Shown one piece after another: positions 1-63,548 of a stretch of DNA of 64,000 nt (its first letter is position 1; each line of letters opens with the position of its first letter). The notes below the pieces were generated by a model. The model was not told where the DNA came from and ran no database searches. It worked only from the letters and a program-made list of their open reading frames with translations. The translations under genes were made by a program, and so were the position numbers. The DNA comes from a virus. The stretch lies in IMG/VR virus record IMGVR_UViG_3300032401_000001, positions 124,001 through 188,000 of that record; one strand, written 5' to 3'.

Positions 1-346
1 TCTTCTCGGGATCGGTCAGGTTGATTGGTTGGCGCAGCAGGGTGCGCGCGGCGGTTAGCTGCGCTTCAGCCTCAGCGATAGCCTTACCGCCACCAGGTAC
101 GCGACGGAGTTCTGGGGCTTGACTGCGAATCAGCGCTTCGAGTTGATCGAAGCGGCGCAGGATGACCAGCCGCTGGGCACGCAACGCCAAGTTCGCCATC
201 CGTGCAGCTAGTGGTGGTTTGCCCTGTGGGGATTGCCAGGCGCCGATCACAACGCGAATCGTAGCACGGTCGCCGGTATAAGAGATAGAGACCTCACTAC
301 GACGAAAGGAGCTGACGATGTGGGTAATTGGGATTGTCGTCTTCAC
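1..346 (-). CDS. Hypothetical protein, C-terminus beyond window edge
   Basis: The minus strand is open from about 346 down to position 1 with no stop, while plus frames here are closed. The readable part starts with a probable beta-rich stretch (EVSISYTGDRATIRVVIGA) and continues into a helical, Arg/Ala/Glu-rich segment. Two starts are possible: GTG at 346, preceded by GAGGG, which would overlap the start of the plus-strand gene at 318, or ATG at 199, which has no clear ribosome site. No family is recognised. Given its place at the end of the tail block it may be another tail protein, but that is only position. The start is uncertain. Confidence 0.5.
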   Translation of the reverse strand, partial: MKTTIPITHIVSSFRRSEVSISYTGDRATIRVVIGAWQSPQGKPPLAARMANLALRAQRLVILRRFDQLEALIRSQAPELRRVPGGGKAIAEAEAQLTAARTLLRQPINLTDPEK

Positions 347-34531: not shown

Positions 34532-35449
34532 CTACGCGCCGGGGAGCGCGCCGACCTGGAACGCGATCGTGTTGCCGATGCCGATGCCCGGGGCCGCGTA
34601 CGACCAGAACTCGATGACGTCGGCTTCCTGCTTGATGTACAGCGTGGCGTCCTGCAGCAGGAAGAAGTTCCCCAGGAAGTTCTCCGGCGCGAAGACGTAG
34701 AACTTCTTCGGGTTGAGGATGTCCGACTTCATCGTCGAGACGACCGGCATGCCCCAGAGCTTCTCTTCGGCCTCGATGCCCTGGTCGTAGTGGCGCGACG
34801 CGATGTCGTCGCCGACCATGGTCGCCGGCAGGTCGAGGGACTCGTAGTAGAGCTGCTTGGTCATCAGGATCTTGCCGACCGGCTGCCGCCGCGCGAGCAT
34901 CGCCTGGAAGCAGGTGCGGAAGGCGGTGCTGTTGAAGGCGGGGGCCGCGGTCAGCTGGACCGCCGCGTTCAGCGCGACCAGGGCGTCGATCGTCTCGACG
35001 AACTTCTTGTCCTCCTGGTCCGCCATATCCTTCACCGAGTTGTCGGAGAGGATCTTGCGGATGTCGTTCTGGTACGTCATCAGCTCCCACTTGTTCTTGG
35101 TGAACCGCTGGCTCTCCGTCTTGCCGAACTTCACGGCGTAGCGGGGGCCGCGGAACCAGGTGCGGGGGCCGGCGCCCTGGAAGGTCACGAAGGTGGCCAC
35201 GGAATCGGGCTCCTTCTCGACGATCTTCTTGGGCTGGTCCGTGTTCTCGTCACGGTCGATCTCGTCGTCCGCGAGGAGAATCGGGTTGATGATCTCGCGG
35301 GCGAAGGACTCCTGACGGACCTTCGTGCGGATGAAGGCCGACCCCTCATCCTGTGCTTCCTTGACCCGGCCCTCTTCGAGCTTCCGGACGAAGTTCGAGT
35401 TGATGAGCTGGGCCGCGACCTCTTTGGTCTCGGTCATGTAAGCGGGCAT
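34532..35449 (-). CDS. Major capsid protein (HK97 fold)
   Basis: A 305-residue protein. The charged, probably helical N-terminal ~60 residues are followed by a core with strands and loops that match HK97-fold coat proteins, ending in a C-terminal A-domain-like run (FFLLQDATLYIKQEADVIEF, then GIGIGNTIAFQVGALPG). The size (300-350 residues) fits. The start follows GGAGGAAACC. It probably builds the head as hexamers and pentamers and may be trimmed by the protease at 38301. It lies between the decoration-like protein and small head genes. Confidence 0.85.
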   Translation of the reverse strand: MPAYMTETKEVAAQLINSNFVRKLEEGRVKEAQDEGSAFIRTKVRQESFAREIINPILLADDEIDRDENTDQPKKIVEKEPDSVATFVTFQGAGPRTWFRGPRYAVKFGKTESQRFTKNKWELMTYQNDIRKILSDNSVKDMADQEDKKFVETIDALVALNAAVQLTAAPAFNSTAFRTCFQAMLARRQPVGKILMTKQLYYESLDLPATMVGDDIASRHYDQGIEAEEKLWGMPVVSTMKSDILNPKKFYVFAPENFLGNFFLLQDATLYIKQEADVIEFWSYAAPGIGIGNTIAFQVGALPGA

Positions 35450-37577: not shown

Positions 37578-38237
37578 CTAGCGCCGCCCCTGCGCGGCTT
37601 GCTGCCGCAGGACGTCGTTGATGGTCACCGCGCCGGCCTTGTAGCAGTCGGCGGCCAGCTTGTGGACCTCGGTCATGGTCTCGTTGTAGCCGCGCGCGAA
37701 GTCGTCCTGCGCTTGCTTCTCGAGCCCTTCCCACTGACGCTGGTAGCCGAGGGAGTAGGCCTCCTTCACCAGCTCGGGGTTCGCCTCGGCGAACTTGACG
37801 AACGCGGGGTCTTCCGCGGCGGTCTTGATCTGCTCGACGGCCTGGTCGACGTACTGAGGCTGCGCAGCGGCGGCGGCGTGCGCGGCGGCGGTCTTCACCT
37901 GGGGCGGCGCGACCTGGAGCGCGGCGGCTTCGTACTCCGCGAACTTCGCCATGAAGCCGTCGCAGATGGCCGCGCCGTAGACCTCCGACAGCTTGATGAG
38001 GCGCTCGTGCTCGGCGTTGCTGAGGTCTTCGGCGATCTTCAGCAGGTCACCGACCGGCGCGTTGGCGGGCGCCACGGCGGACGCCGTCTTCTCTTGGGTC
38101 ATGACCGTGCGCAACACGTCGCGCAGAGCTTCGGGTGCCGTGCCCGTACCGTTCGTGCCGGCGGCGGCGGTCTTCACGCCGGACGACGACGTCTGCGTGC
38201 TCTGGTCGAGACGGTGCATGATCTGTGCGAGTTCCAT
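37578..38237 (-). CDS. Probable internal/scaffold protein with KTA motifs
   Basis: A 219-residue helical protein. ATG 38237 follows GGAGAGG. It contains five lysine-[TQ]-Ala motifs (VKTA twice, EKTA, IKTA, EKQA), the highest density in the window. The charged helical content and Ala-rich spacers fit a scaffold or core protein next to the prohead protease gene. A TTGTTT/TATCAT promoter is 29 bases upstream. Confidence 0.65.
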   Translation of the reverse strand: MELAQIMHRLDQSTQTSSSGVKTAAAGTNGTGTAPEALRDVLRTVMTQEKTASAVAPANAPVGDLLKIAEDLSNAEHERLIKLSEVYGAAICDGFMAKFAEYEAAALQVAPPQVKTAAAHAAAAAQPQYVDQAVEQIKTAAEDPAFVKFAEANPELVKEAYSLGYQRQWEGLEKQAQDDFARGYNETMTEVHKLAADCYKAGAVTINDVLRQQAAQGRR

Positions 38238-38265
38238 CGTGGCCCTCTCCGTTCGCGGCATCCCA

Positions 38266-38294
38266 ATGATAGGACGCCTGTTCCCGTAAAACAA
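38266..38294 (-). promoter_or_regulatory. Leftward promoter of the head-assembly genes
   Basis: Minus strand: TTGTTT (38294-38289), 17-base spacer, TATCAT (38271-38266), about 28 bases before the 38237 start. Confidence 0.65.
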
Positions 38295-38300
38295 GCCGTG

Positions 38301-48744: not shown

Positions 48745-50559
48745 TCAGTAGCGTTCGGGAGGCCCGGTGCCGAACGACTCGCCCATGACGAGCGCGGGAA
48801 CGGGGTGCGTACCGTGCAGCTCAGCCGTTTCACCGAAGGCGGCACCCTCGAGAATGGAGTCTTTGAGGTTGCGATGGGCCAGCCGGGCTAGCCAGTCTGG
48901 CCGCAGCAACGGGGCGCGGCTGATGGGCTTCATGAGGGGTTCGTGCAACGGAATGCGCGGGGCGATGGGCACCGTTTTGATGCCGACGCGGCGCAGGTCC
49001 AAGGCTACCGCGGGGGTCACACGCGTGCCGGCGGTGTAGTGGAGCACGTTGTTGCCAAGGGTCTCGCCCAGGGCGTCGGTCACCGACATCACCTTGGTGT
49101 GCTCAGCGACCAGGTTGCGGAACCGGTTGTAGTCGATGACGTCGCCGCGCAGGAGCCCGAGTTGTTCCGCGTCTCGGTCCATGATCTTGACGTAGTTCAG
49201 ATCGGTCTTCGCCAGCAGCTCGAGGTGGCGGCGGTCCAGGTCGAGACCGTGTCGTTTGTAGATGCCTTGCAGCTGATCGACGAGGTACTGGCGGCCTACC
49301 CCTAGTCCTTTATGACGTACGACATCGTCGGGACGGGGGATGCCATCGGAGAGCGCGTCGCCGGCTTCGATCTTGTCACCTCGACGCACGGTCACATCTA
49401 GGATCGGCGGTACGTAGTGCTGTTCTTGATCGACCGTGACGTAGTGACCACCCTGTGGTGCTGCGGCGACTGCCGTCACGGTGCCAGGCTGTTCTGAGAG
49501 CACGGCGCGGTTGAAGAAGCTCTGCGGAATCTCAGTGAGCTGCTTGAGGCCCGACAGGCCACTCAGCACAACTTTCCGTGAGGCGGTGGTACGGGCGGCG
49601 TGTTTCGCGTTGAGTGCCATCTGGGTGAGGGGTTCACCCATGGCGTGCGCCGCGATCATGCCGACGTTGTCGCCGATGCGTGCGTTCTGGCCGCGGTTGT
49701 TCAAGCCGTAGCAGCGCTGGCAGACACCGTGCGGGGCTTCACAGGTCATCGGTGAACGCAGCACTACCGTCTTACTATGGAGTCGACTCGCCAGTTGACC
49801 CGTGAGCAACGTGCCGGCGGGGATACCTTCACTGGACTTGGCGAGATAACGGTCTCGGGCTTGCGGGTCATCGGCGAGCATCGCCAGGCCGTTGGTGGTG
49901 CCGCAGTCCGGCACCGTGATGAGCTGGTCACCCATGTTGCCGATGAGCAGCTTGCTGATTTCGCCCGGTGCGGAAACGGAGGTATTCGATTCAACGGCGT
50001 TGCGGCGAGCTTCACCCAAGGCGATCCAGGCGTCGATGGGTTTGAGCCCCTCGGCGTAGCTCTTGCTGATGATCCACGGTACGGTGCGCCCGCGGTCATC
50101 GGTAACTGCCACCGGTGACGTCACGGTGCGCATGACCTGGGGCATGCTGCCGCGAGCACCACTGCGGACCATCATCGCGGCCTGGCCGGGGTGATGCTTG
50201 GTGATTTCGATGATCTTGGGTTGCAGGTCTTCGATGAGCTTGATGCGGGCCTGGAGATCGTGGGTGCGCTTCACCTGCGCCAGCACAGGTTCGAGCAGCG
50301 GGTCACGCACGGCGTATTCGGGTTCGATGTCGTCTAACCCGACGGTGACGCCTTCGTCGGTAGCGACGGCATCCCCGATACGCTTGATGTCGGAGATGGC
50401 CTGCACATAGCGTGGGGCGTCGTTACGCGCCAGATCTGACATCAACGCATTGAGCTCGTGCCGCGCCAGTGGTTGAGTGACGTGATGCGACGCGGGCAGG
50501 GCTTCGTTCAACAGCAGTCGACCGATGGTGGTCGTCGCTGGTTTGCGCTTGGTCGGCAT
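48745..50559 (-). CDS. RNA polymerase beta-prime, C-terminal part
   Basis: A 604-residue homologue of the C-terminal half of bacterial beta-prime. It begins at the TIGRLLLNEALP region (bacterial TVGRxxL) where the fused gene at 55694 ends. It keeps SGARGS (133-138), the DCGT Cys (219) with C273, C280 and C283 of the second zinc site, and the trigger-loop segment GEPLTQMALNAKH with His 320. No large insert is seen. It would have to associate in trans with the beta/beta-prime-N fusion to give an active centre. The ribosome site is weak, and the gene is separated from the fusion by eight genes (5.1 kb). Confidence 0.9.
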   Translation of the reverse strand: MPTKRKPATTTIGRLLLNEALPASHHVTQPLARHELNALMSDLARNDAPRYVQAISDIKRIGDAVATDEGVTVGLDDIEPEYAVRDPLLEPVLAQVKRTHDLQARIKLIEDLQPKIIEITKHHPGQAAMMVRSGARGSMPQVMRTVTSPVAVTDDRGRTVPWIISKSYAEGLKPIDAWIALGEARRNAVESNTSVSAPGEISKLLIGNMGDQLITVPDCGTTNGLAMLADDPQARDRYLAKSSEGIPAGTLLTGQLASRLHSKTVVLRSPMTCEAPHGVCQRCYGLNNRGQNARIGDNVGMIAAHAMGEPLTQMALNAKHAARTTASRKVVLSGLSGLKQLTEIPQSFFNRAVLSEQPGTVTAVAAAPQGGHYVTVDQEQHYVPPILDVTVRRGDKIEAGDALSDGIPRPDDVVRHKGLGVGRQYLVDQLQGIYKRHGLDLDRRHLELLAKTDLNYVKIMDRDAEQLGLLRGDVIDYNRFRNLVAEHTKVMSVTDALGETLGNNVLHYTAGTRVTPAVALDLRRVGIKTVPIAPRIPLHEPLMKPISRAPLLRPDWLARLAHRNLKDSILEGAAFGETAELHGTHPVPALVMGESFGTGPPERY

Positions 50560-50568
50560 CGGAGAAGA

Positions 50569-50940
50569 TCAACCGCGAGGATTGGCAGGTACCATCAGGC
50601 CACCCGAGGAACGCCCCTCTTCGACGTGCGTCGATCCACCCCAGGTCGTGAGTCGGTCGAGGTTGTTGGTGTAGGCGTAGTTGGCGTTGTCGGGGTTACT
50701 CCTCCCCTTGATCCCTTCGTCATCCATGTCGCGCAGCAGGCGCGCAAAGCGTTCGGCGCCGATGTTCATGCTCTTCTCGGGAAAGGGCGTGCCGTGCTGA
50801 TCACCACCTTCGTTTGGCGGCATCGGGGCGGCGGTCTTGCGCGCCTGGCGCCGTGCCAGCGCGTAGGCGATGTCGTCGCTCATGAGCCCCAAAGCTTTCA
50901 GGGCTTCACCGGCACCGCGACTGAAGAACTCGTCACCCAT
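50569..50940 (-). CDS. Small virion-like protein with shared N-terminal motif
   Basis: A 123-residue protein with the N-terminal helix FFSRGAGEALKALGLMSDDI and an RKTAAPM motif at ~35, then a disordered acidic tail. GGAGC precedes the ATG. It lies between the holin-like gene and the beta-prime C-terminal gene. The motif pair connects it to the proteins at 52298, 47266 and 11429. A role in virion assembly is inferred. Confidence 0.6.
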   Translation of the reverse strand: MGDEFFSRGAGEALKALGLMSDDIAYALARRQARKTAAPMPPNEGGDQHGTPFPEKSMNIGAERFARLLRDMDDEGIKGRSNPDNANYAYTNNLDRLTTWGGSTHVEEGRSSGGLMVPANPRG

Positions 50941-50951
50941 GGTAGCTCCGT

Positions 50952-51623
50952 TCAGCGGCCGCTGGTGCCTTCACGCTGGGCACGCGCCAGCAGCTTGGCG
51001 CGCTCCCCGTTGCTGCCGATGACGTCTTCGCTGCCGACGCGACTGAGATGGAGCACCGCGTCGGCGAGGCGCTTCGCCTGTTCTTCCTGGTACTGCTTGC
51101 CGTAGCCGAGTGAATCGGCGAACTCCATCAATCCCTTGACGACCTGCTTGCTCTTCTCGGCACCAGGTGTGGCTTGACCGTCACCGTGCAGGATGCGACG
51201 TTCGGCTTCTTCTTCGGCGGCGGCGACAAGTTGCTTGGCCTTGTCGGTGAGCAGCTTCTCGACTTCGGCGGGGACGTCGAGATTGTACTTCGCTTCGAGC
51301 AGCTTGATGAGCTTGCCGAGAAGCACGGTGACGAACGCGGCCAGAAGGGTGCCGATGGCCGTGAGTACCGGCGAGAGCAGCGGCATCCACCACTGCTGCA
51401 CGTTCGCAGCGGCCTTCACGACGGGGGTCGCGGGTTGCGTGGCGGCGATGATCGGCTGCGTGGCGGGCGCCGCTACGGCGATCAGCGGCGGTACGACCAT
51501 GAGCAGGAGCGCCAGGACGAGGAATGCCCCCAGCACGCGGATGCGCCAGGTCAGATGGTGAATCTCGTCATTCCGCATCTGGTCGAGGACGTTGCGCATC
51601 TTGAGCCACGGACGAATCGACAT
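50952..51623 (-). CDS. Holin-like membrane protein (LLH-type pattern)
   Basis: A 223-residue protein with two transmembrane segments (about 30-50 and 81-105) and an amphipathic helix, KLIKLLEAKYNLDVPAEVEK, leading into a helical domain with AAAEEEAERRI. The TM-plus-YNLDVP/AAEE pattern is typical of LLH-family phage holins, though this protein is longer than usual (~100-150 residues). It would form membrane lesions to trigger lysis if the call is right. It has its own promoter (51677) and AGGAG site. A structural membrane role is an alternative. Confidence 0.6.
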   Translation of the reverse strand: MSIRPWLKMRNVLDQMRNDEIHHLTWRIRVLGAFLVLALLLMVVPPLIAVAAPATQPIIAATQPATPVVKAAANVQQWWMPLLSPVLTAIGTLLAAFVTVLLGKLIKLLEAKYNLDVPAEVEKLLTDKAKQLVAAAEEEAERRILHGDGQATPGAEKSKQVVKGLMEFADSLGYGKQYQEEQAKRLADAVLHLSRVGSEDVIGSNGERAKLLARAQREGTSGR

Positions 51624-51634
51624 GAGGGCTCCTG

Positions 51635-52084
51635 TCAGCGAAGGTTTACCGCGTAAAGCGCGGTGACGATACCCCTAGTATAAGGTATGGACGCCTGCTT
51701 CACGATGTTGAGATCGGGGTCGGTCTGGTACATCACGGGCTGGTCATGTGGCTGTGGCTGGTCGTCGTACGGCAGCTTCGCGTAGCGCTGCGCGGAGATT
51801 GGCGGCAGCGCATCGCCGCGGAGCTTGGTGCGGATGAAGTCGTCAGCCGCGGCGCTGGCCTTTTCTTGCTTCGCTTCTGCTTCCATCGCCTTGAGGCGGC
51901 GATAGTAGTCGGGAATCTCGGTCAGGTGATCGATGGCGATGTCCGTCTGCTTCGCTGGATCGTCCGTGTGCTCATGTTCGATCTTCTGACCGGCGGCAAC
52001 TTCGGCGGCAGAGAAGTCGGACGGCTTCTTGCCCTCTTTTTCGGCGTTGCCGCCGGGGATGCCGCCGGGGAGTGCGTAGGCCAT
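51635..52084 (-). CDS. DUF5661-like phage protein
   Basis: A 149-residue protein starting at ATG 52084 (GAGG upstream). Residues ~30-65 match the DUF5661 pattern (HTDDPAKQTDIAIDHLTEIP, then YYRRLKAMEAE), a small helical domain frequent in phage genomes. The rest is Pro/Asp-rich; a VKQA motif lies near the end. The last codons contain a palindrome copy and the holin-like promoter is inside the gene. The function is unknown. Confidence 0.7.
   Translation of the reverse strand: MAYALPGGIPGGNAEKEGKKPSDFSAAEVAAGQKIEHEHTDDPAKQTDIAIDHLTEIPDYYRRLKAMEAEAKQEKASAAADDFIRTKLRGDALPPISAQRYAKLPYDDQPQPHDQPVMYQTDPDLNIVKQASIPYTRGIVTALYAVNLR
51645..51657. repeat. Palindrome TTTAC-CGC-GTAAA (copy 7 of 8)
   Basis: A 5+3+5 inverted repeat within the last codons of the 51635 gene, 22 bases upstream of the holin-like start. 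Confidence 0.75.
51677..51705 (-). promoter_or_regulatory. Leftward promoter of the holin-like gene
   Basis: Minus strand: TCGTGA (51705-51700), 17-base spacer, TATACT (51682-51677), inside the 51635 gene and about 54 bases before the holin-like start. Confidence 0.6.
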
Positions 52085-52086
52085 GA

Positions 52087-52296
52087 TCAACCTCGAGGCA
52101 CAAGCCCAGTGTCGAGTAGCGCTTGCGCCACGCCGTGCCCGAAGAACCGGCTCTCCTTCTTGCGACCGACGCGCTCGGGGAGCTTCTTGCCCTTGGGCGT
52201 GGTGTCCTCCCAGTGCTTGACGGTGGTCTTCGAGATCTCACCACGGTCAGCCATGGCGTAGAACTTGCCGCGTTGCGCTTGGCTCTTGAAGGGCAT
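52087..52296 (-). CDS. Small phage protein (MPFKSQAQR family)
   Basis: A 69-residue protein. The start MPFKSQAQRGKFYA and the middle HWEDTTPKGKKLPERV are characteristic of a small protein family widespread in phages, usually annotated as hypothetical. It is basic and may bind nucleic acid. An AAGGAG-like site is upstream. It sits between the ligase-fusion gene and the DUF5661 gene. The role is unknown. Confidence 0.75.
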   Translation of the reverse strand: MPFKSQAQRGKFYAMADRGEISKTTVKHWEDTTPKGKKLPERVGRKKESRFFGHGVAQALLDTGLVPRG

Positions 52297-52297
52297 G

Positions 52298-54193
52298 TCA
52301 CTGCTCCTTACGCGTCGGCTGCTTTCGTTCCATCACGCTGACTTTGCCGACACGTGGATCATTGAGAAGGGCGGCGTCATGAAAGCCGAGGCTTTCGTAG
52401 AATCGTTTCGCACCGCGGTTCTTCGAGATACGTTGAAGGGACGTCGCGGGTGTTGGGAGACTCTTCAGCAGCTGTGTGGCAACACCTTGACGCCGGTGTG
52501 GTGGCGACACATAAAGGCCAGTTAAGCGCCCGGTTCCAGGTTCGGCTGCGACGAGTCCACGAAACTTCCCTTCTGGCGTGACATCAAGTTTGACCTGATG
52601 TGGTGTTCCGAACTCTGACGTACGTAGATCGATGTCGCGGATGTGGAATCGCGCAAGATCTTCTGCGGTGGCGTCGCGGATGTGTTGCGACGTTTTCTCT
52701 TCTGACGGCAGCAGGCCCAGATTCTTGTCGAGGTGCCAGTCCTTGAAGGCCGGCGCACGCAGTGCTCCGGGCTTCTTCGGATGCTCCTTGTCGTGGTAGA
52801 GCCCAAGGGCCTGCACCTTGGCGACGCGGCCGATGTACTTCGCCGGGTTCGACAGCATGTCGCGCTTGAGCGCATGGTCGAGTCCGGTGCCGACGTTGCC
52901 GACGATCTTGCCCTCGGGGGTCCAGGAGTAGCGGAAGCCGCCGGCCAACTCGGTACGCGCCCCCGTCTCTGGGTAGACCTCACGCACGTAAACGTCGTGG
53001 TCTGGTCGGAACTTGGCCTTGGTGGGCGGGCCACCGGCGAGGGGCCAGAGCACGACGCCTTCGCTGGTGATGGGTTCCTGCCCGGTGCGAATCCGGTTCA
53101 GCAGGTCGATCTTCTCTTTCGGCGTCCGCGCCATCGGCGGGAGTTCGAGGAACGGTAGCGACTTGTGGACCTCCCCAAGGATGGACAGTTTCTTCTCGTA
53201 GGGGAGTGACTCCAGGTCTTTCCCGTGGCGCCGCGCGACATCGAAGATGATCGCTCGCAGCGGCGTGTGAGTTTGCAGATCGCGGCTCTTCCATACGCCG
53301 GAGTTGAGGACGGCGCCCGTATCTTGAGTTCCGCGAGCTCTTCCGGTGTGAGGGTCGGCGGCGACGAGTTCCCCCCGGAGCACCAGTTGGTCGAGATGAT
53401 CAGGCACGCGGGTCGTGTATCCCGGCAGGAATCGGTGGCTGTGCTCGATGACCCCGGTGTCGCGTTCGGTAGGACGGTAACTGAAAACCCGTACGGGATG
53501 ACCCGCATCAAGAACGAATGTGTTGTGTGCGCCGTCGACCTTTGCGGCCATGAGTTGCTGATCATTGGTGACGTCGACCTTGTCGGGGGTCGTCTCCTTG
53601 TAGTCGGGCTTGCTCTGGGGAATGTCGGGGCGCTTCTCTTTGGTGATGGTCACGTTCTGCAGCAGCCACTTGTCACCGTGGGTGCGGTGCAGGACGTACT
53701 CGTTGATGTCCTTCCCCTGATAAACGTTGAAGCGTACCTTGTCGCGGTTCGCTTCGACTACGTCGACCGGTTCCTTGAGTGCCATACGGACCTTGCCGGC
53801 GCCGTATCCTGAACCGATCGTCTGCTCACCCTTCTCGCCGAAGTGGAGTGCGTAGTCGGGGGTGTGCGTGAACGTTTGGACGGCGAGCAGGCGCTCGCCG
53901 GGTTCTGGTAGACGAGCTTTCGGGATCGCCCACGAGTGAGCTTTCCCCGCGTCAGGATCAACCAGACGCAGGTCGAAGTGCGCGCGGCCGCCTGAGCGCG
54001 CAGTTTCGTGGTGCTGTACGGCGAGCGTCCAGCGGTTGAGCGTATCGGCGTTGATCGTCGGGAGTGGGGAGACCGGCTTACCCTTGGGGATGCCCGGGGC
54101 GAACTCACCGGGCAGGGCTGCCTGGGCGGTCTTCAGTAGACCGAGGTCCGCCAGCGCGGCGAGGCGACCTCCGATGGTGTAGACCGCGGCCAC
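52298..54193 (-). CDS. LigD-type phosphoesterase / ATP-dependent DNA ligase / GNAT fusion
   Basis: A 631-residue protein. Residues 1-25 hold a helical motif plus LLKTA. Residues 53-145 match the LigD 3'-phosphoesterase domain, with likely metal and catalytic residues H62, H72-x-D74-x-R76, H110 and Y114. Residues 214-400 match an ATP-dependent ligase nucleotidyltransferase: motif I KVDG (K218), RGELVA (E275), FDVARRHG (317-324), SEGVVLW (377-383) and TKAKFRP (391-397). An OB-like region follows. Residues 540-605 look like a GNAT acetyltransferase (GLYVSPPHRRQGVATQLL and NRGAKRFYESLGF). GTG 54193 follows GAGG. It could repair ends and nicks in injected DNA. The fusion is unusual. Confidence 0.8.
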   Translation of the reverse strand: MAAVYTIGGRLAALADLGLLKTAQAALPGEFAPGIPKGKPVSPLPTINADTLNRWTLAVQHHETARSGGRAHFDLRLVDPDAGKAHSWAIPKARLPEPGERLLAVQTFTHTPDYALHFGEKGEQTIGSGYGAGKVRMALKEPVDVVEANRDKVRFNVYQGKDINEYVLHRTHGDKWLLQNVTITKEKRPDIPQSKPDYKETTPDKVDVTNDQQLMAAKVDGAHNTFVLDAGHPVRVFSYRPTERDTGVIEHSHRFLPGYTTRVPDHLDQLVLRGELVAADPHTGRARGTQDTGAVLNSGVWKSRDLQTHTPLRAIIFDVARRHGKDLESLPYEKKLSILGEVHKSLPFLELPPMARTPKEKIDLLNRIRTGQEPITSEGVVLWPLAGGPPTKAKFRPDHDVYVREVYPETGARTELAGGFRYSWTPEGKIVGNVGTGLDHALKRDMLSNPAKYIGRVAKVQALGLYHDKEHPKKPGALRAPAFKDWHLDKNLGLLPSEEKTSQHIRDATAEDLARFHIRDIDLRTSEFGTPHQVKLDVTPEGKFRGLVAAEPGTGRLTGLYVSPPHRRQGVATQLLKSLPTPATSLQRISKNRGAKRFYESLGFHDAALLNDPRVGKVSVMERKQPTRKEQ

Positions 54194-54205
54194 ACAGTGC
54201 CTCGC

Positions 54206-54730
54206 CTATCCCTTGCGACCCTTCGCGGTAGTGTGGCCGATGCGCTTGGCGGTGGTCATTTTCTTCTTGTGGGACATCTTGCGCTTCAGCGCCTGGAAGC
54301 GGCCACCGACACCTACTGGAGTACGTGACGCGGATTCACGTGCGCTGCTGGGCCGTCCGTTTCGACCACGAGGGCCACCCAGCTTTTCGAGGGTGCGCCG
54401 TACGATGCCATCGGTGTCGACTTCGAAACCGGCGAACTTCGGTGGTGGCGCCGTGGGGTTGTCGTACTCGGCGTCCTGCATGTCGCGGGCAAAGTCCGCC
54501 GCGGCGCGGGTACGTGCGCCGAGCTTCGTGCTCGAGACGGGGGCCATCGGTGAACCCATCGGGGGCGCAGGGGCGGCCGTGTTCGTCGGGGGCTGGGCGG
54601 CTATGGCCGAAGGCGTCGGTCCGCCCGTCGTGATCGCGGGCGTGGCGCTCGTCTTGACCTGTACGCCGAAGTGCTGCAGTGCCGCCTCAGCACCGATGCG
54701 AAAGGCCAAGTCGAGATGCCGGTTGCTCAT
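54206..54730 (-). CDS. Virion-like protein with HLDxAFxxGA motif
   Basis: A 174-residue protein. Residues 5-25 (HLDLAFRIGAEAALQHFGVQ) match the N-termini of the two downstream-encoded paralogues at 54817 and 55075. It has VKTSA, a Pro/Ala linker and a basic C-terminus (KRKMSHKKKMTTAKRIGHTT) with nucleic-acid-binding character. GAGGAG precedes the ATG. Probably an internal virion protein. Confidence 0.65.
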   Translation of the reverse strand: MSNRHLDLAFRIGAEAALQHFGVQVKTSATPAITTGGPTPSAIAAQPPTNTAAPAPPMGSPMAPVSSTKLGARTRAAADFARDMQDAEYDNPTAPPPKFAGFEVDTDGIVRRTLEKLGGPRGRNGRPSSARESASRTPVGVGGRFQALKRKMSHKKKMTTAKRIGHTTAKGRKG

Positions 54731-54816
54731 GCTGACTCCTCAGACGACACGCGCCGCGCCAGGATCCCGGAGGAACGCCAAATTGTCCGGCATGTTGGTG
54801 CCGGGTTCGGGCGGAA

Positions 54817-55047
54817 CTACGGCGGTCCGCCCGGGGAACGCCCGGGGAGGCGGGTACCCGGGAGATCGGTGGGTAGCTTCGGCGGCGTTGGCCGCGGCAC
54901 GATTCCGGGTCCTGGGCGACCGGGCTTAACGTCGGGCGTGGGGATGGGCGGTCGATCTTCCCCCACGGCCACCTTGTTGAGCTCCGTCTCGAAGTCGTAC
55001 TGCGCCTGTGCGGCGCCGATCTTGAATGCGGTATCCAGGTGCGACAT
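54817..55047 (-). CDS. Short protein with HLDxAFxxGA motif
   Basis: A 76-residue protein. Residues 3-25 (HLDTAFKIGAAQAQYDFETE) are nearly identical to those of the 55075 gene; the rest is Pro/Gly/Arg-rich. AAGGAGAG precedes the ATG. The region after the stop (54731-54816) reads in another frame as PPEPGTNMPDNLAFLRDPGA, so a frameshift could have shortened the protein. Confidence 0.6.
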   Translation of the reverse strand: MSHLDTAFKIGAAQAQYDFETELNKVAVGEDRPPIPTPDVKPGRPGPGIVPRPTPPKLPTDLPGTRLPGRSPGGPP

Positions 55048-55074
55048 GGTCTCTCCTTGTAGTTGGGTGAAACG

Positions 55075-55644
55075 CTACGCCCAACTGGGTCTCTTGAGTC
55101 CGGCGGGTGCCGCGGTGCCAGCGGCGGGACGTAGCCCGGCGGGCGCGGCCGGCTTGGCCCCACTGAAGAACTGCGACATGCCCGAGAAGTTCGGGGTGCC
55201 ACCAGCAGCGGGAGCTGCGGCGGGAGCCCGCGCAACGGCCGTACCACCACCGCCACCACCAGCGCCGGGGTAGTTGATGGGACCAGCGGCGACGGCGGGA
55301 CTGGCCTGCGGTGCACCACGTCCGGTGGGCGTGTTCGCGACTTGGCCACGCTGACCCATGCCCATGCTGGCGAGAGCGTTGGACGGTTGCGTGGTGCCGG
55401 GACGCTGGACGCCGGCGACGGCCGTTGAGGTTGGGGGAGTTCCGGCGCTTCTGCCACCGAGGCCACCGCCCATGGGCGAAGGACCACTCCGCGTCAGTGC
55501 GGGTTGGCCGATGGTCTGCCCCGGGTCTTGCCCGCGCGATGACGGCACCAGGTCGCCGAACTGGCCGGACTTGTGCAGCTCGGCCTGGAAGTCGTGTTGC
55601 GCCTGGGCAGCGCCCAGCTTGAACGCGGTATCGAGATGGCTCAC
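55075..55644 (-). CDS. Ala/Gly/Pro-rich protein with HLDxAFxxGA motif
   Basis: A 189-residue protein from GTG 55644 (GGGAGG upstream). The N-terminus HLDTAFKLGAAQAQHDFQAE defines the paralogue group; the remainder is low-complexity Gly/Ala/Pro sequence, probably unfolded. It is the first gene after the fused polymerase and has its own promoter overlapping the polymerase stop. An internal or decoration role is possible. Confidence 0.6.
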   Translation of the reverse strand: MSHLDTAFKLGAAQAQHDFQAELHKSGQFGDLVPSSRGQDPGQTIGQPALTRSGPSPMGGGLGGRSAGTPPTSTAVAGVQRPGTTQPSNALASMGMGQRGQVANTPTGRGAPQASPAVAAGPINYPGAGGGGGGTAVARAPAAAPAAGGTPNFSGMSQFFSGAKPAAPAGLRPAAGTAAPAGLKRPSWA

Positions 55645-55667
55645 GGAGACCTCCCTGTGCAACCGCA

Positions 55668-55697
55668 AGTATAGGTCATCGATGGACGATTGCTCAA
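55668..55697 (-). promoter_or_regulatory. Leftward promoter of the 55644 gene
   Basis: Minus strand: TTGAGC (55697-55692), 18-base spacer, TATACT (55673-55668). The -35 box overlaps the stop codon of the polymerase gene. Confidence 0.65.
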
Positions 55698-58600
55698 CCG
55701 ATCTCTATCTCGGCGTTGAGCGCGATCTCACCACGACGATACGCGGCGAGCGCTTCGGCCTTGGTCTTGAAGCGGTACTTCTTGCCGTCCTTGGCGTTGC
55801 TGGCCAGATGCACGCCGACGATGGCTTCGTGCTGCGGGAAGACCAGCAGGTCGCTCTTGGTCTTGTCGCCGAAGAGCAGGTTGGACAGCAGCATCGCTTT
55901 CACGTCTTTGACGGCGCCGGGCATGACCGGGACGTGGACGGTCAGCGTGTCGCCGTCGTAGTCGAGGTTGAGGCCCTTCTCGATGAACGGGTTGACGCGT
56001 AGCGTCTTGCCGGGCACGGGTACCGGGTAGGCGCCGATCATGCCGTAGCGGTGCAGCGTGGGGGCACGATTGACGATGAGGGGACGCTCCTGGGCTTCAC
56101 GCAGCAGCGCTTCACGGGCCACCGGCATGTGGTCTTCGAGCGCCTTCTGTGCATCGACCGCGTGGTAGCCGTTCTGCACCAAGCGCCGGATGACGTGTGG
56201 ACCGTACATCGTCCACATCATGTCTTCGGGAATGCCGACCTCGTCCATGTTGAGGTTGAGGTCGGGGACCGCGGTACCGCGACCACTGACGTCCTGCGGG
56301 CGGTAAAGGACCTTGCCGTGGAAGAAGCCGCCTTTGGGGCTGCCTTGGCCGGCGATCGTCGTGATGAATCCCTTGGCGCCGCGACCCTGCAGCTGTGGGC
56401 TCATCGGGTCACCGAGACCGAAGACCGCCTTGGTGGCGTCGTAGAGATGCAGCCGCGCCTTGGCCACTTCTTCGGGTGGCAGCGAGTGCTTGGCTGCGGC
56501 CAGGTTCTCGTTGGCGAGCATCGCGTCGCGGTACAGGTAATTCGCGTCGGAGACTAGCAGGTCCTTGCGTCCGTGTGACGCCGGTAGGATCGGGCGCACC
56601 ACCGGGGGCACGACGCCCAGCTTCGAGATGATGTAGGCCTGGTCCGGTGAGAGCTTCTCCCGTTGCAGCGCCAGGACGTTCTTCAGCTGTTTCAGGGCAC
56701 CATCGAGGCGGGCGCCAGTGGCATCACGCACTTCACCACGCAGTTCGCGCTCGCGCTGATCGAGGTTGATGGTTGCCAGACGGCGGCGGACACCGGCGCC
56801 GCCTTCACGCTCCAGCAAGTCGCGGAACTGTGCGACGGTGAGTCCCAGCAGGCGGCGTACCGGTTCTTCGAACGTCGGGTTCACCAACGGTTCATGCAGG
56901 TCGACGTGTGACCAGCGGGTGCCGTTGGTGCCGCCGGTGACCACCGGATCGAAGAGTCCGCCCTTCTCCGGGGAGAGGTCTTTCTCCTTCACCATGAGCG
57001 GTCGGGCGATGGCGCCGGCGGAGAGCTTCTTCACGTCGGCATCGGTCAACGGACCGAGCGTCATCTGTTCGTTGCCCTTGTCGACCTTGATGCCGGCGCC
57101 GCGCAGCATCTCCAGGAACTTTTCACTGGTGAACGAAGTGCGGGCCGGCGGCAACGGCAGGCCCAGCTGGTAGGCGCGCCAGAACTCGTCGTTGCGTGAC
57201 GACTTGAGGGTCATGGATTCGCGCAGCACGTTGCGGGCGTTGTGCGCCAGCAGGGCGTTGATCTCCATGCGTCCGAGGGCTTTCGCGCCGGTCGCACCGC
57301 CTTTGGCGGGCTGCAGGTTGGCGTCATAATCTTCGACGCCGCGCGCGCTGTAGTTCGTCTCGGTGCTCTTGAAGAGCTTGTAGATGTACTGCGGTCCGAC
57401 CATCACACCCTTGCCATCGGGTCCTTTGATGGTCTTCCCGGTCATCGGGTTGTCGAGGATTTCCTTGTCGGTGAGGCCGTGTTCTTTGAGGAGTCCACGT
57501 GCCCACTTCACGTTGTTCTTGCCGCTGAACGACTCGATGACGATGGGCTTGCCAGTCTTCTCGGCGACTTTGGCGACTGCAGTTTCCAGGATCTGTGCGG
57601 GATTGATGCGGCCATGCACTCCGGTGGGCGGCATGAGCAAGTCCAACGGACGCCCATCCAGGGTGTGCGGCATCTGGGCGATTGGCAGTACCTGAGAGAC
57701 GACGCCTTTGCCGCCGTAGCGGTTCGAGATCTTGTCGCCAATCGCCGCGGGTTCACTGGTGCGGACCGTGAGCAGGATGCGCGACGGGGTCGCGACGACG
57801 TCGACGATTTCACCGGGACAGCGGTGTTCCCACGTCAACGCGATTTCACGGAAGGGCGTGTTCAACGTGCGGTGGAGCTTGCCGAGCATGCGCTGTTCGG
57901 CGGTGGGCAGCGCCTTGTGCAACCCGAGGATGAGTGGGTCGCCGGGCTGCAGCGTCTCCCCGGAACGAGCGACGCCGCGGCTGTCGAGGTGAGCGTACTG
58001 GACGGCGGTCCAGCGGCTGCCGAACATGGCGCGGTGCTTGTCGCGCTCGAGCACCGTGTCCAGGTCGAGCTGGAGCACTTCCTTGTACATATGCTCGCTG
58101 GTCAACTTCTCGGCGGCTGCTTGTGAGATGACCACGGCGTCGTTGGTGTTGGCGCCGTAGTGGGGCAAATAGCCCACGCGGAGATTCGTGCCCAACGCTA
58201 GCCGGCCGTCCATGGTGACGTTCGAGTCGGTGAGGAGTTGTTCGGCGTCAACTTCGTCGCCGGCCTTCACCGTGACGTTGTTGTGCAGGAAGGTCTTGGA
58301 CGACAGCGGGAAGTGGTCGTCGTAAGGGATCTTGATGATCGGCGCGGCGGCGGTCTTCTCACCGTCTTCGGCGAGATAGACATGCTCGACGGGCGCCATC
58401 TGCGGCCACTCGCTCGCCGCTTCGGCCTTCTTCTTGCTCTCGGGTCGCAGGTAGATGTAGTCCTGATCGACCTTGGTGATGGTGCCGGCCACCGGGGCGT
58501 GCGGCACAATGAAGCGCGCGATCTCCTGCTCCATCGTACGGCGGGGATTGAACGACGCGACCTGCACCAACGGAGCTTCACGGTGCACCAGCGGAAGGGC

Positions 58601-60139
58601 CTGGCCGACGTGCTTGGCGCCCATCAGTAGACGGAAACCTTCGACGCTCTCCGGCATCGGGATGGTGTTGCTCGACAGCGAGAACATAAAGGATGGATGG
58701 GGCAGATCGTAGTCGATCTCGCCGCGGCCGACCGAAACCGGCTGCCCGGCGCGCAGGGCCGAGACTCCGCGTTGCTGGTCACGTTGCCACGGCAACGCTA
58801 CCGTGGCGTTCTCGACGTCCTGAACGGCGATGTCTTGGAGTTTGCCGGTTTTGGCGTTGCGCAACAACGTGTGCATCCGGCCCTGCTCGTCACGCTTGAG
58901 CCAGAGCGCGGCGCGCAGGTCGACGCCGGCATGGAAGCTCTCGGGGGTACGCGCCGGGTCGATGAAACCGAAGTGCGTGTGGTGGAGGCTGCGCGCCTCG
59001 TTGGGGATAGCACGTTCGGATTCGATGCCGCCTTCGCCTAGCGTCGTGACCTTGGCTGCACTGTCGAGAATCTCGACGGGATTGATCTGCGTCGGGATCG
59101 AAGACAACGTGCTGTTGGTGATGAAGCTGCGGAGGGTTCGCGTAAACGGTGAGGGCGGGACGATGCGATCGAGGTCGAGGTTGCCCGAAGACGCCTTCAT
59201 ACGCGCCTTCTTGGCCAGGTTGCGCCCCTCCAGCATGATGCGTTCCCGCACGAAGTCGTCGGCGCTCAGCAGTTGTTGGAAGGCGAGGCTGTCGCGGTCG
59301 TCGGTGTCGACGCCTTCACGGTGAACGTCGAGCAGCTTCTTCGAAGCTTTAACTAGGGCCGCCGGGGTCACGTGGGTGAAAGGTGTCCCCAGGGTTCGTG
59401 ACGTGACATCGGGGTCCAGCACGGTGTTGTTGTAGCTCTCGTGGATGGCGTCGGCCTTGGCTTCCTGGGTATGGTGGGTGCGGCGGTACTCCGGCACCAG
59501 GCGCTCGTAGAGCTTATCCATCGCTTTGTCGGCCTTCGCCGGCGTACCAGAGAACATGCTGCGATTCTGGGCGACGACCCCGCTGCCCCAGGCGCGGTTG
59601 AGCTCGGTTTCGGGGACGCCGAGCTTGCGCAGGATGGGGTAGAGCGGGATGTTGGTCGTCCCGTATTGCATGTAGAGGTGACCCTTGGCGGGGTCCATGC
59701 TGAGACGGAAGTTGTCACCGCGGCCCAGGTTGAAGGCGGCTTCGAGTTCTTCGTTGCCCCGCACGCGGGTGTACACGCCGGGGCGGACCCGGCGTTGGTT
59801 CGCTACCGAGTACTCGTTGCCATCCACGATGAACGTGTGTCGGGGCGTGAACCACGGCAGCTGGGCCAACGTGATGTCGTCCTTGCGCTGGACGGTCTTT
59901 CCCGCAGCGTCTTTGAGGACCAGGGATCCCTTGAGGGGTTCCTGCAGCGTGTGTCCCTGCAGCAGCGCGTCTTTCTGTTCGCGGGAGGAGTATTCCTTCG
60001 AGACTACGTGTAGGTCTTCGACTTCGATGCGGTGATCCCGGAGAGCGAGCGGAAAGACGCGACGGACACCGTCGGTCGCTTTTTCGTGGATCTGGGTGCG
60101 ACGTGTGGCGGCATCGATGAGAATTGGGGTCAGAGCCAT
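55694..60139 (-). CDS. RNA polymerase beta / beta-prime N-terminal fusion
   Basis: A 1481-residue protein. Residues ~1-1000 align with bacterial beta: the fork region (SLSSNTIPMPESVEGFRLLM), the segment LRVGYLPHYGANTNDAVVIS, and GDKISNRYGGKGV (801-813), equivalent to the active-site-lining GDK motif. After a short junction, residues ~1040-1481 are beta-prime N-terminal: RPQDVSGRGTAVPDLNLNM, VNRAPTLHRYGM and the catalytic NLDYDGD (1391-1397; D1393, D1395, D1397) that binds Mg. The N-terminal zinc site of beta-prime is absent. The protein ends at ALNAEIEIG, where the 48745-50559 gene takes over. An EKTA motif at ~594-597 lies in a surface insert. No strong ribosome site; a TATACT box ends 9 bases before the ATG. 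Confidence 0.92.
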   Translation of the reverse strand: MALTPILIDAATRRTQIHEKATDGVRRVFPLALRDHRIEVEDLHVVSKEYSSREQKDALLQGHTLQEPLKGSLVLKDAAGKTVQRKDDITLAQLPWFTPRHTFIVDGNEYSVANQRRVRPGVYTRVRGNEELEAAFNLGRGDNFRLSMDPAKGHLYMQYGTTNIPLYPILRKLGVPETELNRAWGSGVVAQNRSMFSGTPAKADKAMDKLYERLVPEYRRTHHTQEAKADAIHESYNNTVLDPDVTSRTLGTPFTHVTPAALVKASKKLLDVHREGVDTDDRDSLAFQQLLSADDFVRERIMLEGRNLAKKARMKASSGNLDLDRIVPPSPFTRTLRSFITNSTLSSIPTQINPVEILDSAAKVTTLGEGGIESERAIPNEARSLHHTHFGFIDPARTPESFHAGVDLRAALWLKRDEQGRMHTLLRNAKTGKLQDIAVQDVENATVALPWQRDQQRGVSALRAGQPVSVGRGEIDYDLPHPSFMFSLSSNTIPMPESVEGFRLLMGAKHVGQALPLVHREAPLVQVASFNPRRTMEQEIARFIVPHAPVAGTITKVDQDYIYLRPESKKKAEAASEWPQMAPVEHVYLAEDGEKTAAAPIIKIPYDDHFPLSSKTFLHNNVTVKAGDEVDAEQLLTDSNVTMDGRLALGTNLRVGYLPHYGANTNDAVVISQAAAEKLTSEHMYKEVLQLDLDTVLERDKHRAMFGSRWTAVQYAHLDSRGVARSGETLQPGDPLILGLHKALPTAEQRMLGKLHRTLNTPFREIALTWEHRCPGEIVDVVATPSRILLTVRTSEPAAIGDKISNRYGGKGVVSQVLPIAQMPHTLDGRPLDLLMPPTGVHGRINPAQILETAVAKVAEKTGKPIVIESFSGKNNVKWARGLLKEHGLTDKEILDNPMTGKTIKGPDGKGVMVGPQYIYKLFKSTETNYSARGVEDYDANLQPAKGGATGAKALGRMEINALLAHNARNVLRESMTLKSSRNDEFWRAYQLGLPLPPARTSFTSEKFLEMLRGAGIKVDKGNEQMTLGPLTDADVKKLSAGAIARPLMVKEKDLSPEKGGLFDPVVTGGTNGTRWSHVDLHEPLVNPTFEEPVRRLLGLTVAQFRDLLEREGGAGVRRRLATINLDQRERELRGEVRDATGARLDGALKQLKNVLALQREKLSPDQAYIISKLGVVPPVVRPILPASHGRKDLLVSDANYLYRDAMLANENLAAAKHSLPPEEVAKARLHLYDATKAVFGLGDPMSPQLQGRGAKGFITTIAGQGSPKGGFFHGKVLYRPQDVSGRGTAVPDLNLNMDEVGIPEDMMWTMYGPHVIRRLVQNGYHAVDAQKALEDHMPVAREALLREAQERPLIVNRAPTLHRYGMIGAYPVPVPGKTLRVNPFIEKGLNLDYDGDTLTVHVPVMPGAVKDVKAMLLSNLLFGDKTKSDLLVFPQHEAIVGVHLASNAKDGKKYRFKTKAEALAAYRRGEIALNAEIEIG

Positions 60140-60177: not shown

Positions 60178-60220
60178 CTCAGAGCCCGGTATAAGAAGGT
60201 GTTGAACCCCTCCCTTTTGA

Positions 60221-61785: not shown

Positions 61786-63513
61786 TCAGCCGCCGCGTGC
61801 TTGAGTCTTGCCCTGCTGGGCGGCGGCCAATTGCCGTTCTTCCAACCGCTGGACCACGACGGAGTAGAGGACGAAGTCTTCGACCTGGAGAGCATGCAGC
61901 TGGCTCTTGCGGGTACCCGGATCGAGTCCCAGGAGTTGTTCCACCAGCTGGTCGGCCTGGGCGATGACTTGCTGCTGATCGTAGTTCATGCCGGGACCAC
62001 TGCGCAGCGCTTCTTGCTGGGTCTTCTGTGCCAGGGATTGCTGCAGCTTCTGCACCTTGAGTTGCAGCGTCTGCTGGAAGCGCACCTCGTCGAGGGCTTC
62101 CTCCATGCGCCGTTCGCGTTCCTTGTCGAGGTCGAAGTCGTTCATCTCGGCGATGGTGGTGTTCGAGATGATCTGCTGGCCGCCCTGGTTGAGCTGCATG
62201 ATGAGCTGCTTCTGCTGCACGTCGTCGATGAGCTTGAACTCCTGCAGCTCGAGGTCGACCTTGCCCCAGCCGAGGATGCGACAGCAGCGGTCGGTGATCC
62301 ACTGCGCCAGTTCGTCCAGCGCACCGGTATAGGTGAGGAGCTGGTTCTCGAGCATGCGCAGCGTGATGGCCGAGCCCGTGAAGCTCATGCCGCCGTAGAT
62401 GAACTCGCGCGGGATGCCCATGGCGGCGATGATGTTGTCTTCGACCTGCTGCACTTCGCCAAGCGTGAGCAAGGCACGGCCATCACCACCCATCTGGGTG
62501 AGCTGAACGGGCACTGGCGCGAACATGATGGTGAGCGGGTCACGGCGCCAACGACGGATGCCGCCCTTGAACTGCTCGAACATGTTGGCCAGCGAGATGG
62601 TCATGATGGGGTCGGCGCCGCTGGTCGCCTGGGCCGGGGACACGACGCGGAACGGCACCAGGTGATCGAGGGCGATGGCTTCGTTGGCCTTGCGCAGCAC
62701 CGCGGCGTAGAAGAAGAGCTTGATGGCGCTGGTGAGGGGCGGGAAACCCCACTGCTGGGTGATGCCGGCCGGCGGCGGCACCTTCATGTGGAAGATGTAG
62801 TCGTCGGCGAAGCGGAACATCTTATTGTCGCGGGCGGCCTTGATGTAGGCCAACGGCAGCGAGTTGAGCAGCAGCTTGTTGCCCTTGCGGATGCGGTCCT
62901 TGATCTCGGCGGGAACCGAGTGGTAGTAGACGGCCTCGCCGCTGACTGGGTTGAAGTCGACGTCCATCTGCTTCGGGTCCCAGCGCACCAGGTTGATGCG
63001 GTTGGGATCGGTCAGGCGGCGGTCGATGACGCGGCCCTCGACGGTGTTCTTGCACTGACGGCAGGTGTACTCGAAGCCGAGCTTCATGAAGCGGAAGCGG
63101 TAGTTGACGTGCTCGATGCCCACCATCTTGCCGCACTCGGGGCACTTGAGGAACCGCGCGAAGGGCTGGTACACGGAAACGAAGGCGTTGCCGTAGATCC
63201 AGTAGTCGCGCCCGACGACCATCAGGAATTCCTTCAGGCGCAGCGTCTGTTCGACGAGGTGCTTGACGCGGTCCTTCAGGTTCTCGTTGGTGGTGTCGTA
63301 GGTGAAGTCGGTGATGGGGTACTCGCAGAACTTCTTGAGGCCGGCGAAGATCTGAGCGGAGTTGTAGTAGAGGTACTCCATCCAGATGAAGAGGTCGCGC
63401 AACCGTCGGGGCACGAAGCCCGTCAGGAAGTCGAACATTGGGTTGGGATGAGTTGTATTGTGCCTGAAGAGCGCTTCGACGTCACTCGAGTAGGGATCGC
63501 CAGCGAAGCTCAT
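61786..63513 (-). CDS. Portal protein with zinc-ribbon insertion
   Basis: A 575-residue protein. The core shows portal-type features: an N-terminal helical region, a WIYGNAFVSVYQPFARF segment, a wing with long strands, a stem/clip region ending in RLTDPNRINLVRWDPKQMDV, and a C-terminal crown helix rich in Gln. Residues 124-154 (C124, C127, C151, C154) insert a zinc ribbon, seen in some large-phage portals. ATG 63513 is used because a TATCCT -10 lies 6 bases upstream; alternative starts are weak. It forms the dodecameric DNA gate at one capsid vertex. Confidence 0.85.
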   Translation of the reverse strand: MSFAGDPYSSDVEALFRHNTTHPNPMFDFLTGFVPRRLRDLFIWMEYLYYNSAQIFAGLKKFCEYPITDFTYDTTNENLKDRVKHLVEQTLRLKEFLMVVGRDYWIYGNAFVSVYQPFARFLKCPECGKMVGIEHVNYRFRFMKLGFEYTCRQCKNTVEGRVIDRRLTDPNRINLVRWDPKQMDVDFNPVSGEAVYYHSVPAEIKDRIRKGNKLLLNSLPLAYIKAARDNKMFRFADDYIFHMKVPPPAGITQQWGFPPLTSAIKLFFYAAVLRKANEAIALDHLVPFRVVSPAQATSGADPIMTISLANMFEQFKGGIRRWRRDPLTIMFAPVPVQLTQMGGDGRALLTLGEVQQVEDNIIAAMGIPREFIYGGMSFTGSAITLRMLENQLLTYTGALDELAQWITDRCCRILGWGKVDLELQEFKLIDDVQQKQLIMQLNQGGQQIISNTTIAEMNDFDLDKERERRMEEALDEVRFQQTLQLKVQKLQQSLAQKTQQEALRSGPGMNYDQQQVIAQADQLVEQLLGLDPGTRKSQLHALQVEDFVLYSVVVQRLEERQLAAAQQGKTQARGG

Positions 63514-63519
63514 GCTCGG

Positions 63520-63548
63520 AGGATAAGCCACGTGACCCAAGAGTACAA
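63520..63548 (-). promoter_or_regulatory. Portal promoter, leaderless
   Basis: Minus strand: TTGTAC (63548-63543), 17-base spacer, TATCCT (63525-63520), 6 bases from ATG 63513. Confidence 0.6.

What the first reader, a model, noticed from the sequence alone, without database searches (positions are those of the whole stretch)
48745..60139. Multisubunit RNA polymerase with a beta/beta-prime-N fusion and a separate beta-prime-C gene
The window encodes a nearly complete bacterial-type polymerase active centre split in an unusual way. The 1481-residue product joins beta to the N-terminal half of beta-prime (NLDYDGD catalytic site at 1391-1397), while the rest of beta-prime (bridge-helix region, trigger-loop segment with His 320, second zinc site) is a separate 604-residue gene 5.1 kb away. 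The break falls at a place reminiscent of the rpoC1/rpoC2 split, while the fusion resembles rpoB-rpoC fusions; both together are odd. The known phiKZ- and AR9-type phage polymerases use other splits. No alpha, omega or sigma gene is seen here. Lying in the virion gene block, it could be a packaged (injected) polymerase.
Basis: partly seen in the sequence, partly recalled or inferred. Interest (0 to 1): 0.85.

Follow-up and report, generated by a model that had tools for sequence, protein, structure and literature searches.

The report
Fused, sigma-partnered phage RNA polymerase
This phage carries its own bacterial-type RNA polymerase as two odd pieces (beta joined to half of beta-prime, plus the other half), and in its cultured relative Arash the same two pieces and a sigma factor are found in purified virus particles, which suggests that these viruses inject a ready-made polymerase-sigma complex to start transcription.

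Summary
Window 55694-60139(-) encodes beta fused to the N-half of beta-prime (1481 aa). Window 48745-50559(-) encodes the C-half (604 aa). The core catalytic residues are present; the first beta-prime zinc domain is missing. The split is not an error: the named phages Arash (Salmonella) and D69/D181/D148 (Vibrio) and dozens of IMG/VR contigs share it. Related contigs carry the whole polymerase as one ~2,000-2,200-aa chain, others as three pieces. The portal gene lies upstream in most loci, in all forms.

Packaging is supported for Arash by published virion mass spectrometry: the fusion gives the most spectra of any protein, and fusion, beta-prime-C and sigma Gp10 give about equal spectra per residue. 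For the window phage it is inferred from conserved gene order. Its genome has a Gp10-like sigma outside the window, in the same gene order as in Arash; 30 of 33 related records have one. A strand-biased promoter-like motif, GGTATAAG-N4/5-TG, is shared with Arash and many two- and three-piece relatives.

Best reading: a sigma-dependent, alpha-less virion polymerase, a new variant of the known phage multisubunit polymerases, which are described as lacking sigma homologues. Activity, injection and sigma pairing are untested.

The parts
57074..60139 (-). beta part of the fusion gene (residues 1-~1022; catalytic beta DPBB; K1065/K1073/R1106/E565/R678 equivalents kept)
55694..57073 (-). beta-prime N part of the same gene (residues ~1023-1481), no Zn1 domain, clamp-helix region present, ends at E. 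coli beta-prime ~551
55949..55969 (-). catalytic motif NLDYDGD, residues 1391-1397 (D460/D462/D464 equivalents)
48745..50559 (-). beta-prime C gene, 604 aa: bridge helix, Zn2 cysteines C219/C273/C280/C283, trigger loop with H320, C-terminal region; starts at E. coli beta-prime ~571
50569..55668 (-). block of other genes between the two polymerase genes, including a LigD-N/ATP-ligase/GNAT-like protein (52298-54193) and a DUF5661 protein (51635-52090)
61786..63540 (-). portal gene, homologue of Arash gp204 (31% over 561 aa); lies upstream of the polymerase gene in most relatives
34532..35449 (-). major capsid protein, homologue of Arash gp226 (39%)
60188..60201 (+). promoter-like motif GGTATAAG-N4-TG upstream of the + strand ORF at 60305, divergent from the polymerase gene
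275..282 (+). GGTATAAG core upstream of the + strand ORF at 318 (lacks the TG at the exact spacing)

Best explanation
The two genes encode the catalytic core of one phage RNA polymerase of bacterial type: a beta-beta-prime-N fusion chain that pairs with beta-prime-C to form the active centre without alpha. Shown by sequence and model: both catalytic barrels on one chain, the core catalytic residues, intact Zn2, loss of Zn1, and a split at E. coli beta-prime ~551-571. Inferred: the core pairs with the Gp10-type sigma encoded at 37837-38547 of the record, is made late with the head proteins, is packaged, enters the cell with the DNA, and starts early transcription, most likely at the phage's own GGTATAAG-N4/5-TG promoters, independently of host RNA polymerase and probably resistant to rifampicin.
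For: Domain and active-site tests. An AlphaFold2 model of residues 560-1481 (pLDDT 84.6, pTM 0.75) matches both beta and beta-prime chains of solved polymerases, E down to 2e-27. Arash virion mass spectrometry (PMC10585845): fusion Gp206 3516 spectra (rank 1), Gp216 1210, sigma Gp10 467; per residue 2.3, 2.0 and 2.0, while the other sigma, Gp196, is not listed. A Gp10-like sigma is in 30 of 33 records and in this genome in the order gp4-gp6-gp8-sigma-gp13-gp14-gp15; its model matches sigma-factor structures. Portal upstream of the polymerase across one-, two- and three-chain forms. Motif strongly strand-biased in many records (25:1, 23:1, 21:1, 16:0; own 3:0) with few matches to the reversed pattern.
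Against: No activity, injection or sigma binding has been measured for any member. The Arash preparation listed 116 proteins, including a primase and a ribonucleotide reductase, so carry-over is possible; its authors say so. Spectra per residue are a rough measure of stoichiometry. The sigma-contact residues of the clamp helices (R275, E295) are not conserved. The promoter motif is absent or rare in one-chain genomes, D69-like phages and some others that still have the sigma. Which polymerase reads the motif is unknown. E813 is N in the window protein, E in the five relatives compared.
Confidence: 0.6

Rival explanations
1. It is a non-virion polymerase made during infection to transcribe middle or late genes; its presence in Arash particles is carry-over of an abundant enzyme.
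For: The Arash particle list includes clearly non-structural enzymes. A late-type motif (CTAAAAT) differs from the early-strand motif, so two promoter classes may exist.
Against: The fusion outranks even the capsid protein in total spectra. The genes sit between portal and capsid genes. Only one of the two sigmas is listed in the particles, with a per-residue count like the core's.
Confidence: 0.2
2. The phage sigma factors work with host RNA polymerase, and the phage polymerase recognises promoters by another route, as in phiKZ and AR9.
For: Many phages encode sigmas that redirect host polymerase (PMC7824862). The motif resembles an extended -10 element, which host sigma factors can also use. 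Sigma-contact residues in the clamp helices are changed.
Against: The sigma co-occurs with the polymerase in 30 of 33 records and lies in a virion-gene cassette. In Arash it is listed in the virion; the paper's table names phage proteins only, so host core polymerase was neither shown nor excluded there.
Confidence: 0.19
3. A recently acquired or decaying host polymerase fragment, or a split created by sequencing or assembly error.
For: Strong similarity to bacterial beta and beta-prime.
Against: Same layout in independent contigs and cultured phages at 34-98% identity. Catalytic residues conserved. All phage forms are one clade against five bacterial rows.
Confidence: 0.01

Closest known systems
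Salmonella phage Arash Gp206 + Gp216 (OQ632216; PMC10585845)
   Same: Same fusion and same split (35% and 30% identity), portal upstream, capsid module downstream, Gp10-type sigma in the same gene order, same promoter-like motif.
   Different: Annotated simply as 'beta' and 'beta-prime'; the passages read do not mention fusion or split. Motif spacer mostly 5 instead of 4. Different genes lie between the two polymerase genes.
phiKZ/AR9-type jumbo phage polymerases (PMC7598289)
   Same: Bacterial-type catalytic core without alpha; beta-prime split after the DPBB domain; one of the two enzymes is in the virion.
   Different: Those split beta and keep beta and beta-prime apart, in at least 4-5 chains, with two polymerases per phage and no recognisable sigma homologue. 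Here beta is joined to beta-prime-N, only one polymerase was found, and a sigma70-family protein is encoded.
Cyanobacterial/plastid rpoC1-rpoC2 split
   Same: The model of the fusion aligns over most of the rpoC1-type chain (TM-score 0.57-0.58 by target), so the break is in the same region.
   Different: There rpoC1 is not fused to beta; exact break residues were not compared.
Helicobacter/Wolbachia rpoB-rpoC fusions (from general knowledge)
   Same: Beta C-terminus joined to beta-prime N-terminus; the one-chain phage relatives are the same idea.
   Different: Bacterial fusions keep the full beta-prime and alpha; the window phage cuts beta-prime and lacks Zn1.
Yersinia phage YerA41 and Cobetia phage Carin-5 polymerases
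   Same: Phage-encoded bacterial-type beta and beta-prime; YerA41 also splits beta-prime; Carin-5 has a sigma gene beside the polymerase.
   Different: No beta-beta-prime fusion; far more distant in sequence.

Membership tests
Bacterial-type multisubunit RNA polymerase | Two DPBB domains with the beta-prime D-x-D-x-D triad and beta K1065/K1073 | tested here: met
   model matches both chains
Bacterial-type multisubunit RNA polymerase | Bridge helix, trigger-loop His936, Zn2 cysteines | tested here: met
   H936 and C814/C888/C895/C898 kept; trigger-loop R933 is N
Bacterial-type multisubunit RNA polymerase | Beta-prime Zn1 domain (C70/C72/C85/C88) | tested here: not met
   deleted in the window protein and all five relatives compared
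Bacterial-type multisubunit RNA polymerase | Alpha subunit encoded with the core | tested here: not met
   no PF01000 match in the record, which may be incomplete
phiKZ/AR9-type jumbo phage polymerase | Beta split into two or more chains | tested here: not met
   beta intact and fused to beta-prime-N (one relative, L138, splits beta)
phiKZ/AR9-type jumbo phage polymerase | Two polymerases, virion and non-virion | tested here: not met
   one beta and one beta-prime in the record, which may be incomplete
phiKZ/AR9-type jumbo phage polymerase | Beta-prime split after the DPBB domain | tested here: met
   for this split; the phiKZ/AR9 position is taken from PMC7598289
Arash-type phage polymerase | Beta-beta-prime-N fusion + beta-prime-C, portal upstream, Gp10-type sigma in a conserved cassette | tested here: met
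Virion (injected) RNA polymerase | Present in purified virions | not testable with these tools
   Reported for the Arash orthologues; no data for this phage
Virion (injected) RNA polymerase | Enters the cell and transcribes early genes | not testable with these tools
   No experiment available
Sigma70 family (Gp10-like protein) | Sigma regions 2 and 3 and a sigma fold | tested here: met
   (region 3, 28.9 bits, over cut-off, own copy); region 2 weak (Arash Gp10 17.5 bits, under cut-off); fold matches sigma chains, E ~1e-6, low global TM

The most novel reading that the evidence does not exclude
A widespread group of ~140-210 kb phages packages a complete sigma-dependent polymerase holoenzyme. 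Its catalytic core was once a single ~2,100-residue beta-beta-prime chain and was later cut into two and then three genes in different lineages, with a dedicated phage promoter code.
Probability: 0.4. Interest if true: 0.85.

Novelty: new variant of a known kind. Interest (0 to 1): 0.72.

Why it matters
Reviews state that phage multisubunit polymerases lack sigma homologues and are split into four or more chains (PMC7598289, PMC13282480). Here a phage polymerase co-occurs with, and in Arash is found in particles with, a sigma70-family protein. The same enzyme occurs as one, two or three chains in related phages, so RNA polymerase gene fusion and fission can be followed within one family, and a one-chain, alpha-free, possibly sigma-dependent polymerase becomes a concrete thing to purify. 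A cultured relative (Arash on a Salmonella host) makes the tests feasible.

Tried and rejected
Sequencing error or second copy: rejected. Host-genome relatives: a scan of genome contigs found none. Direction of evolution: the tree puts one-chain forms next to the bacterial root and the split forms in one clade (SH-aLRT 99), but a tree with the one-chain forms as a clade is not rejected (p-AU 0.275), and the branch to bacteria is long, so 'one chain first' is only favoured. Exact split position in AR9 and YerA41: the added-fragment alignments were unreliable at their ends, so not claimed. The Arash late motif CTAAAAT is absent from the ~155 kb of own sequence examined; TATACTTG upstream of the own fusion gene is only a weak candidate.
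Full report
OBSERVATION. The window is bases 124001-188000 of a 197,792-base IMG/VR record, possibly a fragment. ORFs at 55694-60139(-) and 48745-50559(-) give 1481 and 604 aa. Pfam and PDB sequence searches show beta plus beta-prime-N in the first and beta-prime-C in the second. Only one beta and one beta-prime were found in the record, and no alpha. The gap between the genes holds several ORFs, including a LigD-N/ATP-ligase/GNAT-like protein.

ACTIVE CENTRE. Aligned with Salmonella, Acinetobacter and two further bacterial polymerases and with five phage relatives, the window protein keeps: beta E565, R678, D814, K1065, K1073, R1106; beta-prime R352, R425, P427, D460, D462, D464, R731, R780, the four Zn2 cysteines, E925, Q929 and H936. 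Changed are beta E813 (N), H1237 and K1242, and beta-prime R339, R738, M932 and R933. The Zn1 domain is deleted in all phage members compared. Rifampicin-contact residues D516, H526 and S531 are changed in the window protein, which predicts resistance. The fusion ends at E. coli beta-prime ~551 and beta-prime-C begins at ~571. An AlphaFold2 model of residues 560-1481 (pLDDT 84.6, pTM 0.75) matches solved beta and beta-prime chains, including cyanobacterial and plastid rpoC1-type chains over most of their length. The C-terminal strip of beta-prime-C aligns with the family and, by eye, with bacterial beta-prime; no separate fold was run for it.

RELATIVES. tblastn finds the same pair in Salmonella phage Arash and Vibrio phages D69, D181 and D148. 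In D181 the fusion gene is interrupted by a stretch with a homing endonuclease. IMG/VR scans gave 114 stretches that encode a relative of the fusion (80 kept) and 57 for beta-prime-C. HMMs built from the three founding sequences show four layouts: beta-beta-prime-N + beta-prime-C (window type); everything in one chain of ~1,990-2,200 aa, with Pfam domains of both subunits in single ORFs (L053, L124); three pieces, with the extra cut inside beta-prime-N; and one case with beta itself cut (L138). Some copies carry inserts: LAGLIDADG alone in L028, LAGLIDADG with Hint or intein domains in L104 and L115.

PHYLOGENY. In trees of concatenated beta, beta-prime-N and beta-prime-C (92 and 55 rows), all phage forms stand apart from five bacterial rows. 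Split forms are one clade (99). Three-piece forms arise twice inside it. One-chain forms lie next to the root, but their being a clade of their own is not rejected. The direction 'one chain, then two, then three' is therefore favoured, not proven. L162, used as bacterial, comes from an unannotated 'Bacteriophage sp.' clone, and L152 and L160 from unverified phage-labelled contigs; they were taken as bacterial from their sequence and position only.

VIRION CONTEXT. The window shares with Arash the portal (31%), capsid protein (39%) and other head genes in the same order. A portal homologue lies upstream of the polymerase in most loci, including one-chain ones (31-34%); in several one-chain loci other sequence lies in between. 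In the Arash virion proteome (PMC10585845) Gp206 has the most spectra (3516, 128 unique peptides), Gp216 has 1210 and sigma Gp10 has 467; dividing by length gives 2.3, 2.0 and 2.0. Gp196, the second sigma, is not listed. The authors caution that abundant enzymes may be carry-over.

SIGMA. Sigma region 3 was found in 30 of 33 related records, own genome included. All 30 ORFs match Arash Gp10 by phmmer (own copy E 1.6e-25). The own gene, 37837-38547(-) of the record, sits in the order gp4-gp6-gp8-sigma-gp13-gp14-gp15 as in Arash (the gp4 and gp15 matches are weak). Its model (pLDDT 85.9, pTM 0.47) matches sigma factors at E ~1e-6, though global TM-scores are low (0.2-0.36), as can be expected for loosely linked domains. 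A second sigma with a strong region 4, related to Arash Gp196, lies at 195059-195952(-).

PROMOTER-LIKE MOTIF. In Arash, GGTATAA occurs 41 times, nearly all on the minus strand near starts of minus-strand genes, with consensus tGGTATAAGtAArgTGtaa. The extended form is found 12 times against 0-1 in ten shuffled genomes. The pattern GGTATAAG-N3-6-TG is strongly strand-biased in many split-form genomes (25:1, 23:1, 21:1, 20:1, 16:0, 15:1), with 3:0 in the own genome, and rare in one-chain and D69-like genomes; the reversed pattern gives few matches, at most 5:1 in one record. The counts include some overlapping matches of the same site. The spacer is mostly 5 in the Arash group and 4 in the window's group. 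In Arash and several close relatives a lone site on the other strand lies just upstream of the Gp10 sigma gene. The enrichment was noticed during an exploratory search; the own-genome and 33-record counts followed it.

MECHANISM. Shown: a two-chain core with an intact active site and no alpha found, conserved in the head-gene block, with a conserved sigma and, in many split-form genomes, a conserved promoter-like motif. Supported in a relative: presence of core and sigma in particles. Inferred: that they form a holoenzyme, enter the cell and start early transcription at this motif. Tethering beta to beta-prime may stand in for alpha in assembly; this is only a suggestion.

KNOWN VERSUS NEW. 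The layout already sits in the Arash record, annotated as ordinary beta and beta-prime; neither the passages read nor eight literature searches showed a description of the fusion, the split, the one-chain relatives or the sigma pairing. The library lacks most subscription journals and preprints, so absence of a report is weak evidence. Two reviews say known phage multisubunit polymerases lack sigma homologues, although the later one notes a sigma-like structure in phiKZ gp68. I rate it a new variant of a known kind.

Noticed in passing
IMG/VR loci L043-L063 (most), L124, L128, L129, L132, L133, L144: One-chain beta-beta-prime polymerases of ~1,990-2,200 aa in related phage contigs, with a portal homologue upstream in many of them.
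   Followed up: partly
L028, L104, L115 and other enlarged polymerase genes: Insertions inside beta, beta-prime-N or beta-prime-C; LAGLIDADG in all three tested, Hint or intein-splicing domains in two.
   Followed up: partly
Vibrio phage D181, L157 3980-9494: The fusion gene is interrupted by a stretch carrying a homing endonuclease, probably an intron.
   Followed up: no
window 52298-54193 (-): Protein joining LigD 3'-phosphoesterase-like, ATP-dependent ligase-like and GNAT domains, between the two polymerase genes; similar genes occur near the polymerase in several relatives.
   Followed up: partly
Arash gp217, L003 31148-32566: SNF2-type ATPase directly after beta-prime-C, with 1148 spectra in virions; no homologue found at that place in the window.
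   Followed up: partly
window 60154, 55673, 33191 and 3550 (-): TATACTT(G) shortly upstream of late-strand genes, a weak candidate for a late promoter in this phage.
   Followed up: partly
window 13614-13705 (+): tRNA-Arg (acg) predicted on the strand opposite to the late genes.
   Followed up: no
outside the window: G000 195059-195952 (-): Second sigma factor with a zinc-ribbon-like insert, related to Arash Gp196.
   Followed up: partly
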